Source: Saccharomycopsis phalli
Lineage: Eukaryota; Ascomycota; Saccharomycetes; Ascoideales; Saccharomycopsidaceae
Length of the DNA: 64,000 nt
Direction: 5' to 3'
Assembly (NCBI GenBank): GCA_020342235.1
Contig: CP073212.1
Location: 1,116,001 to 1,180,000, forward strand
How positions within the stretch are numbered: the stretch's first letter is position 1; every line of letters begins with the position of its first letter. This document shows, in pieces, positions 14,073 to 15,139 of this stretch. A model generated the notes under the pieces. That model was not told the origin of the DNA. It did not search any database and saw only the letters and a list, made by a program, of their open reading frames with translations. A program made the translations under genes and the position numbers.

Positions 14073-15139
14073 TTAAGACCCGTAGTTGAGTCTGAAAATG
14101 TCATTCAAGACATAGTACGAGTTTCCATCTGGCATCAAGTGGAATACCTGCGAGTAGTTTTGTGGGTTTCTCTCCTCGTCCAACAATAATTGGCCAGTAA
14201 CCAACACAAGAACGTCACCATTGGCAGAGGCTGGTTGGGCGTTGATGGTAGCAATCTTGTGTTCAACACGTTGAAATGGCAACGAGGTTAACTTTTCCAA
14301 GATGGCCTGGACACCTTGACACTCGCTGGTTTCAAAAGTCAACATGGACTCATTTCTATACAAGTTTCCAAGTTGGTTTCTGTCTTGGTCGAAAGTTCTG
14401 TAGTAGAAATTCGTAAACTCGGCTAGGGTTAGCAAGGAACGAGGGTGTGATGAGGTGTGAAAGGAACGTGAAAGGAACGTGAAAGTGAATGTGAATGTGA
14501 ATGTGAATGTGAATGTGAAAGAGTAAGAGAAGTAGAAGCAAACAATATCATGAAAAAACGGATAATAACATGATACAGCAGATGCTTAAACATATCAATG
14601 GAAACACTATAAGCAGTCAAGATACTCAAATTGATTCAATCATTGGGATATTCAGACATTTAACAAAACCAAATGTATTTGAAAAGTTAATATCCAAATA
14701 CCAGGTGAAATGTCGAGAATCCAATGCATTATAACCATTTGAGCATATTCCAAACGCCCAAGATAAGATCCATTTCCAAAATATCAGCCCATTCAATTGC
14801 CACATATTCAAGATTTCATGTATAATATTCGATCATCACATGTGTTGGAAAGAAAAAGAGATGTCATAGAGTCACAAAGAAATCTGACATCTCCACGAAA
14901 TAAAGAGACTTGGACAAATGATAATAGTATCAAAAACAAATCAATAAAAGAACATCACTTTAGAAATGGGAATGTGGCCACAAGTGTGGAAAAGTGTATC
15001 AAAACAACAGACAGGGCTAACATTATCCCATAATTCCTCACGAATACAAGTTATTCAAAAACCAAAAAATACTCACTGGCAAGAGTAGTAAAATCCACTA
15101 TTGTTAGAAAGCTTTTAACCACGAAATCAAATACTCACT
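14073..15139 (-). CDS. NTF2: Nuclear transport factor 2, three exons, start codon split by an intron
   Basis: Coding exons: 15139 (single base A), 15077-15097 (21 nt) and 14073-14422. Intron 1 (15098-15138, 41 nt) is GTGAGT ... TTCTAAC-AATAG. Intron 2 (14423-15076, 654 nt) is GTGAGT ... GCTAAC-CCTAG. The join gives MDFTTLATEFTNFYYRTF ..., which aligns with S. cerevisiae MSLDFNTLAQNFTQFYY, and a total of 123 aa (yeast 125). The ATG is assembled from A at the end of exon 1 and TG at the start of exon 2; no other in-frame ATG exists upstream. The rest is highly conserved (LGNLYRNESMLTFET, NGDVLVLVTGQLLLDEE, VLNDIFRLNY). It imports Ran-GDP into the nucleus through FxFG nucleoporins. Confidence 0.92.
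14423..15076 (-). other. NTF2 intron 2 (654 nt) with simple repeats
   Basis: Near its 3' end, at about 14455-14522, lie repeats of gtgaaaggaac and gtgaat (minus strand: ttcaca/attcac). The remainder shows no clear ORF or snoRNA box pair. Confidence 0.7.

What the first reader, a model, noticed from the sequence alone, without database searches (positions are those of the whole stretch)
14073..15139. NTF2 start codon is assembled across an intron (A|TG)
The only way to give this highly conserved protein its N-terminus is to splice a 21-nt mini-exon (15077-15097) with both flanking introns. The mini-exon begins with TG and the upstream exon ends with A, so the initiator ATG exists only in spliced RNA. 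Both introns have GTGAGT donors and CTAAC-near-AG acceptors, and the product MDFTTLATEFTNFYY aligns with yeast Ntf2. Translation of NTF2 would be strictly dependent on removal of a 41-nt intron.
Basis: partly seen in the sequence, partly recalled or inferred. Interest (0 to 1): 0.75.

Follow-up and report, generated by a model that had tools for sequence, protein, structure and literature searches.

The report
Yeast NTF2 start codon split by intron
In this budding yeast the start signal of a nuclear-transport gene appears to be cut in two by a tiny intron and to exist only after splicing, an arrangement already described for dozens of genes of another yeast, Yarrowia.

Summary
On the minus strand, removing introns 15138-15098 (41 nt) and 15076-14423 (654 nt) yields a 123-aa NTF2 (best solved match yeast Ntf2, E 9.4e-59). 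Its ATG is an A at 15139 joined to TG at 15097-15096. The 1 kb before exon 3 has one D-[FY]-x-x-[LIVMF]-A coding stretch, the mini-exon, and exon 3's own frame has no ATG before Met34. A relative's 123-aa NTF2 (P0001, 89% identical) also begins M-D-F. The signal A|GTRAGT...CTAAC...YAG|TG has 6 hits in the 14.1-Mb genome (reversed pattern 1); I judge only this one a start. Intron 1 has the size and motifs of the genome's other short introns. There were no RNA data: splicing and its necessity for translation are inferred. The kind is in print: 47 Yarrowia lipolytica genes have a first coding exon of just the A of ATG (PMC2911113), and a 2026 study bins 42 introns whose 5' splice site follows the A, T or G of the start codon (PMC13309789). 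Here, introns right behind ATG are common. Verdict: a correct gene model with a rare intron position; new member of a known kind, low interest.

The parts
15139..15139 (-). Last base of the 5' exon: the A of the split ATG (5' end of the exon, i.e. the transcription start, unknown)
   Evidence: Sequence; after splicing the context is AAAT-ATG-G (A at -3, G at +4)
15098..15138 (-). Intron 1, 41 nt, GTGAGT...CTAAC-AA-TAG, interrupts the start codon (A|TG)
   Evidence: size and motifs match the genome's short introns
15077..15097 (-). Mini-exon, 21 nt, TG + GAT TTT ACT ACT CTT GCC + A: completes ATG, codes DFTTLA and the first base of T8
   Evidence: only D-[FY]-x-x-[LIVMF]-A coding stretch on this strand in the 1 kb 5' of exon 3
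14423..15076 (-). Intron 2, 654 nt, GTGAGT...CTAAC-CC-TAG, phase 1, with a 6-nt tandem repeat at 14456-14521
   Evidence: no Rfam match up to E 1 in 13900-15500
14073..14422 (-). Exon 3 of NTF2: rest of residue 8, residues 9-123 and stop TAA
   Evidence: (PF02136, E 1.7e-34)

Best explanation
This is the NTF2 gene of a budding yeast whose nearest named relative in our search is Saccharomycopsis crataegensis. It has three exons: a 5' exon whose last base is the A of the start codon, a 21-nt mini-exon, and the main coding exon. Ordinary spliceosomal removal of a 41-nt intron (A|TG) creates the initiator AUG in mRNA, and removal of a 654-nt phase-1 intron joins the first seven residues to the rest. 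Sequence, frame and motifs are shown; that the introns are spliced and that translation starts at the joined AUG is inferred. A transcript keeping intron 1 would have no in-frame AUG before Met34, so it should not make intact NTF2. I see no sign of a special mechanism: the intron lies after the first base of the start codon in a genome where many introns lie directly behind the start codon.
For: Frame and protein. Homologue N-termini: P0001 MDFNTLASEFT (123 aa, 89%), Ascoidea rubescens P0045 MDYNALATQFT and unnamed P0048 MDFTALAQQFT start at the same Met; the other full-length rows of the 32-row alignment start one or more residues earlier, mostly MS-V-D-F. Four close relatives (P0050 99%, P0077, P0080, P0091; 84-99%) appear as 90-aa ORFs starting at Met34, as expected if the upstream coding part is interrupted there too. 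Motif statistics: 6 genome-wide hits of the full A|TG intron signal, 1 reversed; the 5 others are judged not to be starts (L024-L028). Intron 1, 41 nt, lies within the 44 contig-C1 matches of the short-intron pattern (34-52 nt, median 38.5). Of 39 CTAAC-N0..3-YAG sites in 264 kb, 6 have a GTRAGT donor 34-49 nt upstream, this one among them. Introns exactly behind ATG: 16 genome hits against 2 reversed. In 9 of 16 the ATG frame is the longest open one with an in-frame stop and no other in-frame ATG upstream (one of the 9, L036, opens only 21 codons); 5 are undecided and 2 are clearly not starts. Eight products that I picked from the 16 all hit Pfam: Pam16, ATP-synthase N-domain, LSM (two), Sec61beta, Sec23 zinc finger, SF3b10, QCR9.
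Against: No transcript data. No related DNA could be fetched, so conservation of the A|TG junction is untested; P0001 comes from a 1064-nt contig that may be a transcript or an intronless gene, and P0050 may be the same species. I accept no second A|TG start among short introns (1 of 6 hits), although in two of the other five (L024, L028) the joined ATG heads an open frame of 75 and 213 codons (the same frame is open upstream). The 3 AT|G hits (2 reversed) gave no start. So the position is exceptional here. Introns longer than 62 nt could not be surveyed genome-wide.
Confidence: 0.92

Rival explanations
1. The true first coding exon lies elsewhere upstream and a different ATG is used; the A|TG is a coincidence of splice motifs.
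For: The 5' exon cannot be proven without RNA, and non-consensus donors were not tested.
Against: Only two GT[AG]NGT donors exist in 15423-14400, 15138 and 15076; a wider GTNNGT search adds one, 15012. The only other ATG in 15423-15077 (15337) opens a 41-codon ORF that stops before the NTF2 start. Three homologues start at the same Met. The STR3-like gene ends at 15424 on the same strand.
Confidence: 0.04
2. Transcripts begin inside intron 1 or keep it, and translation starts at a near-cognate codon (AUA-GUG just before GAU), so splicing of intron 1 is not needed.
For: In unspliced RNA the in-frame codons before GAT are ATA and GTG.
Against: In-frame TAG and TGA lie at the donor. Non-AUG starts are weak in yeast (general knowledge, no call). 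Donor, branch site and 3' site are consensus and of typical spacing.
Confidence: 0.03
3. The split start is a regulatory switch: regulated retention of intron 1 turns NTF2 translation off.
For: Retention of intron 1 leaves no in-frame AUG before Met34; the first later AUG opens a 4-codon frame.
Against: No data on retention here. In Y. [quoted passage not shown]
Confidence: 0.04

Closest known systems
Yarrowia lipolytica genes whose first coding exon is only the A of ATG (47 genes; Mekouar et al. 2010, PMC2911113; section 6 read in full, passages elsewhere)
   Same: A|TG split initiator, GTGAGT 5' splice site, CTAAC branch site next to the 3' AG, short introns from 41 nt
   Different: Another yeast; here I accept only one such start among short introns. 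'NTF2' does not occur in that paper's main text; its gene list in the supplements was not readable, so whether NTF2 is among the 47 is open
Y. lipolytica 'start codon' intron class (42 introns with the 5' splice site after A, T or G of the start codon; Nucleic Acids Res 2026, PMC13309789; passages seen)
   Same: Introns at or inside the start codon, treated as a class of their own
   Different: That study has RNA-seq and expression measurements; here sequence only. 'NTF2' does not occur in its main text
Saccharomyces cerevisiae Ntf2 (PDB 1gy7)
   Same: Same protein, aligned over query residues 1-122
   Different: Two extra N-terminal residues in the yeast chain; its gene is intronless as far as I recall (no call)
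Saccharomycopsis schoenii genome (PMC13148404; abstract and passages seen)
   Same: Related genus; sparse GT-AG introns (708 of 5,428 genes)
   Different: 33.9% GC in 7 scaffolds against 42.1% for the window and 42.9% for 264 kb here; 'start codon' has 0 occurrences in its main text

Membership tests
A|TG split-start-codon introns of yeasts | First coding exon consists of the A of ATG only | tested here: met
   (by sequence)
A|TG split-start-codon introns of yeasts | 5' splice site, CTAAC branch site close to 3' YAG and length as in the genome's other short introns | tested here: met
A|TG split-start-codon introns of yeasts | Spliced product is a conserved protein starting at that Met | tested here: met
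A|TG split-start-codon introns of yeasts | cDNA or RNA-seq support for the junction | not testable with these tools
   No transcript reads at hand
NTF2 (PF02136), Ntf2 proper | Full-length NTF2 domain and best match to Ntf2 rather than to NXT1/p15 or G3BP relatives | tested here: met
   1gy7 9.4e-59, best NTF2-related export protein 3.4e-07, G3BP1 1.8e-04
Regulatory start-codon switch | Condition-dependent retention of intron 1 | not testable with these tools
   No expression data

The most novel reading that the evidence does not exclude
The A|TG intron in NTF2 is kept across this yeast's genus and acts as an all-or-none switch that ties nuclear import capacity to splicing.
Probability: 0.04. 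Interest if true: 0.5.

Novelty: new member of a known kind. Interest (0 to 1): 0.17.

Why it matters
It warns that ATG-first gene finding can truncate such genes: four close relatives' NTF2 appear in the protein collection only from Met34 onward (their DNA was not seen). As a biological principle it is already documented in Yarrowia.

Tried and rejected
Rfam scan of 13900-15500 for an intron-encoded RNA: nothing up to E 1. A second A|TG start elsewhere in the genome: 5 other short-intron hits examined. L025, L026 and L027 give 12, 3 and 18 codons from the joined ATG and lie in other frames. L028 gives 213 codons, but the same frame is open for the 70 codons shown upstream. L024 gives 75 codons and looked like a start at first, but its frame continues upstream through a preceding consensus intron; it is the least certain of the five. 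AT|G starts: 3 hits against 2 reversed, none a start. Identification with S. schoenii rejected on GC content and scaffold sizes. Paper searches worded as split or interrupted start codon (two returned no paper) listed nothing whose title I recognised as treating it; I opened none of those papers. A review (PMC5499181, passages) has 0 occurrences of 'start codon' and 'initiation codon' in its main text. I do not claim that an NTF2 case is absent from print. The CTAAC count (196 against 718 in the reversed sequence) suggests that the word is avoided, but the reversed sequence is a rough control.

Full report
Observation. The joined product is a 123-residue protein. Its best solved match is yeast Ntf2 (1gy7, E 9.4e-59, query 1-122 on chain 3-124) and it fits Pfam NTF2 (5.6e-36). 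Exon 3 alone carries nearly the whole domain; its frame runs back unbroken to a stop at 14588 with no ATG before Met34.

Is the N-terminus right? On this strand one place only in the 1 kb before exon 3 codes for D-[FY]-x-x-[LIVMF]-A, the mini-exon. The closest full-length homologue, P0001 (89% identical, from an unnamed 1064-nt contig), starts MDFNTLASEFTNFYY; Ascoidea rubescens P0045 starts MDYNALATQFT and P0048 MDFTALAQQFT, all at the same Met. The alignment has 32 rows, the query and 31 proteins that I chose from the 120 listed of 357 found; the other full-length rows start one or more residues earlier, mostly MSVDF.

Is the start split? Without removal of intron 1 the mini-exon's frame shows ATA GTG GAT, with TAG and TGA at the donor and no ATG. 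The only ATG between the STR3 stop and the mini-exon is at 15337; after splicing of intron 1 it is in the NTF2 frame (198 nt upstream), but two in-frame stops separate them and its ORF is 41 codons. With intron 1 removed the ATG has A at -3 and G at +4. Only two donors of the form GT[AG]NGT occur in 15423-14400, and they are the two used; GTNNGT adds 15012. With intron 1 kept and intron 2 removed, the next AUGs after 15337 are an out-of-frame one closed after four codons and then Met34.

More than chance? The 14.15-Mb genome holds 221 matches (73 for the reversed pattern) to GTRAGT-N15..45-CTAAC-N0..3-YAG (100 of the 221 places were printed). The 44 on contig C1 are 34-52 nt long with median 38.5, so 41 nt is typical. 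About a third of such matches may be chance, by the reversed count. With A before and TG after, there are 6 matches against 1 reversed, about one per 4.7 Mb of strand, so a chance match at this very codon is improbable. I judge that the other five are not starts (L024-L028): three give at most 18 codons from the joined ATG; L024 and L028 give 75 and 213 codons, but their frames are open upstream, in L024 only if a preceding consensus intron is removed. In a contiguous 264-kb stretch, 39 CTAAC-N0..3-YAG sites were listed, both NTF2 acceptors among them; 6 of the 39 have a GTRAGT donor 34-49 nt upstream.

Setting in this genome. Introns directly behind ATG are common: ATG|GTRAGT short introns give 16 hits against 2 reversed. 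I fetched all 16. In 9 of 16 the ATG frame is the longest open one, with an in-frame stop and no other in-frame ATG upstream (L036, one of the nine, opens only 21 codons); 5 (L029, L031, L034, L039, L041) are undecided by this rule; 2 (L038, L043) clearly are not starts. I picked 9 products to print because they looked like known proteins or good starts and sent 8 to Pfam, leaving out L032; all 8 hit a family. Five of the 8 meet the rule (L030, L033, L035, L037, L044) and 3 are undecided ones (L034, L039, L041). In the window itself a syntaxin-like gene (6876 onward) has a 35-nt intron after its second codon. AT|G matches: 3 against 2 reversed, none a start. So the NTF2 intron looks like a rare position within a strong bias toward the start codon. 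Introns longer than 62 nt could not be searched by this pattern.

Organism. The neighbouring STR3-like protein (15424-16644) is 71% identical to Saccharomycopsis crataegensis, its closest named hit; other named yeasts in the 120 listed are at 65% or less, and two unnamed contigs give 79% and 71%. The S. schoenii assembly has 33.9% GC and a largest scaffold of 3.5 Mb, against 42.1% for the window, 42.9% for 264 kb and a C1 of 2.34 Mb.

Known or new. Mekouar et al. 2010 (PMC2911113, section 6 read in full) state that 47 Y. [quoted passage not shown] A 2026 paper (PMC13309789, passages) treats 42 introns whose 5' splice site follows the A, T or G of the start codon as a class and finds the highest splicing efficiencies near the start codon. 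The NTF2 case is thus a further member of a described kind. Neither main text names NTF2; supplements could not be read.

Mechanism. Most likely constitutive splicing joins A to TG and a scanning ribosome starts there. A switch by regulated retention is possible but nothing here points to it, and the Yarrowia data speak for efficient splicing near the start codon. Shown: sequence, frame, motif rarity, homology. Inferred: splicing, initiation, dependence.

Noticed in passing
window 6876-6917 and downstream, + strand: Syntaxin/SNARE-like gene with first coding exon ATG AAT, then a 35-nt intron (GTAAGT...CTAACGACAG), then an open frame giving a 289-aa product.
   Followed up: partly
window 14073-16644, - strand: NTF2 and an STR3-like cystathionine beta-lyase are neighbours; NTF2 and STR3 hits of relatives share contig lengths (9595 nt: P0050 and P0121; 32257 nt: P0091 and P0126), which suggests that the neighbourhood is conserved (same contig not verified).
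   Followed up: no
window 14456-14521: Tandem repeat of a 6-nt unit (TTCACA on the minus strand) just upstream of the intron 2 acceptor.
   Followed up: no
window 15203-15335, - strand: Several copies of a motif like AATCCAACTTG in the intergenic stretch before NTF2, and two CACGTG words at 15218-15213 and 15208-15203 (by eye).
   Followed up: no
264 kb: the window and the 200 kb beyond it (G000 C1 1116001-1380000): CTAAC is much rarer than its reversed word (196 versus 718, both strands), as if branch-site-like words were avoided outside introns (rough control).
   Followed up: no
L002 1501-1902 (G000 C2 83932-84333): A second NTF2-domain gene in the genome (PF02136, E 2.2e-11) in a 530-codon open frame.
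   Followed up: no
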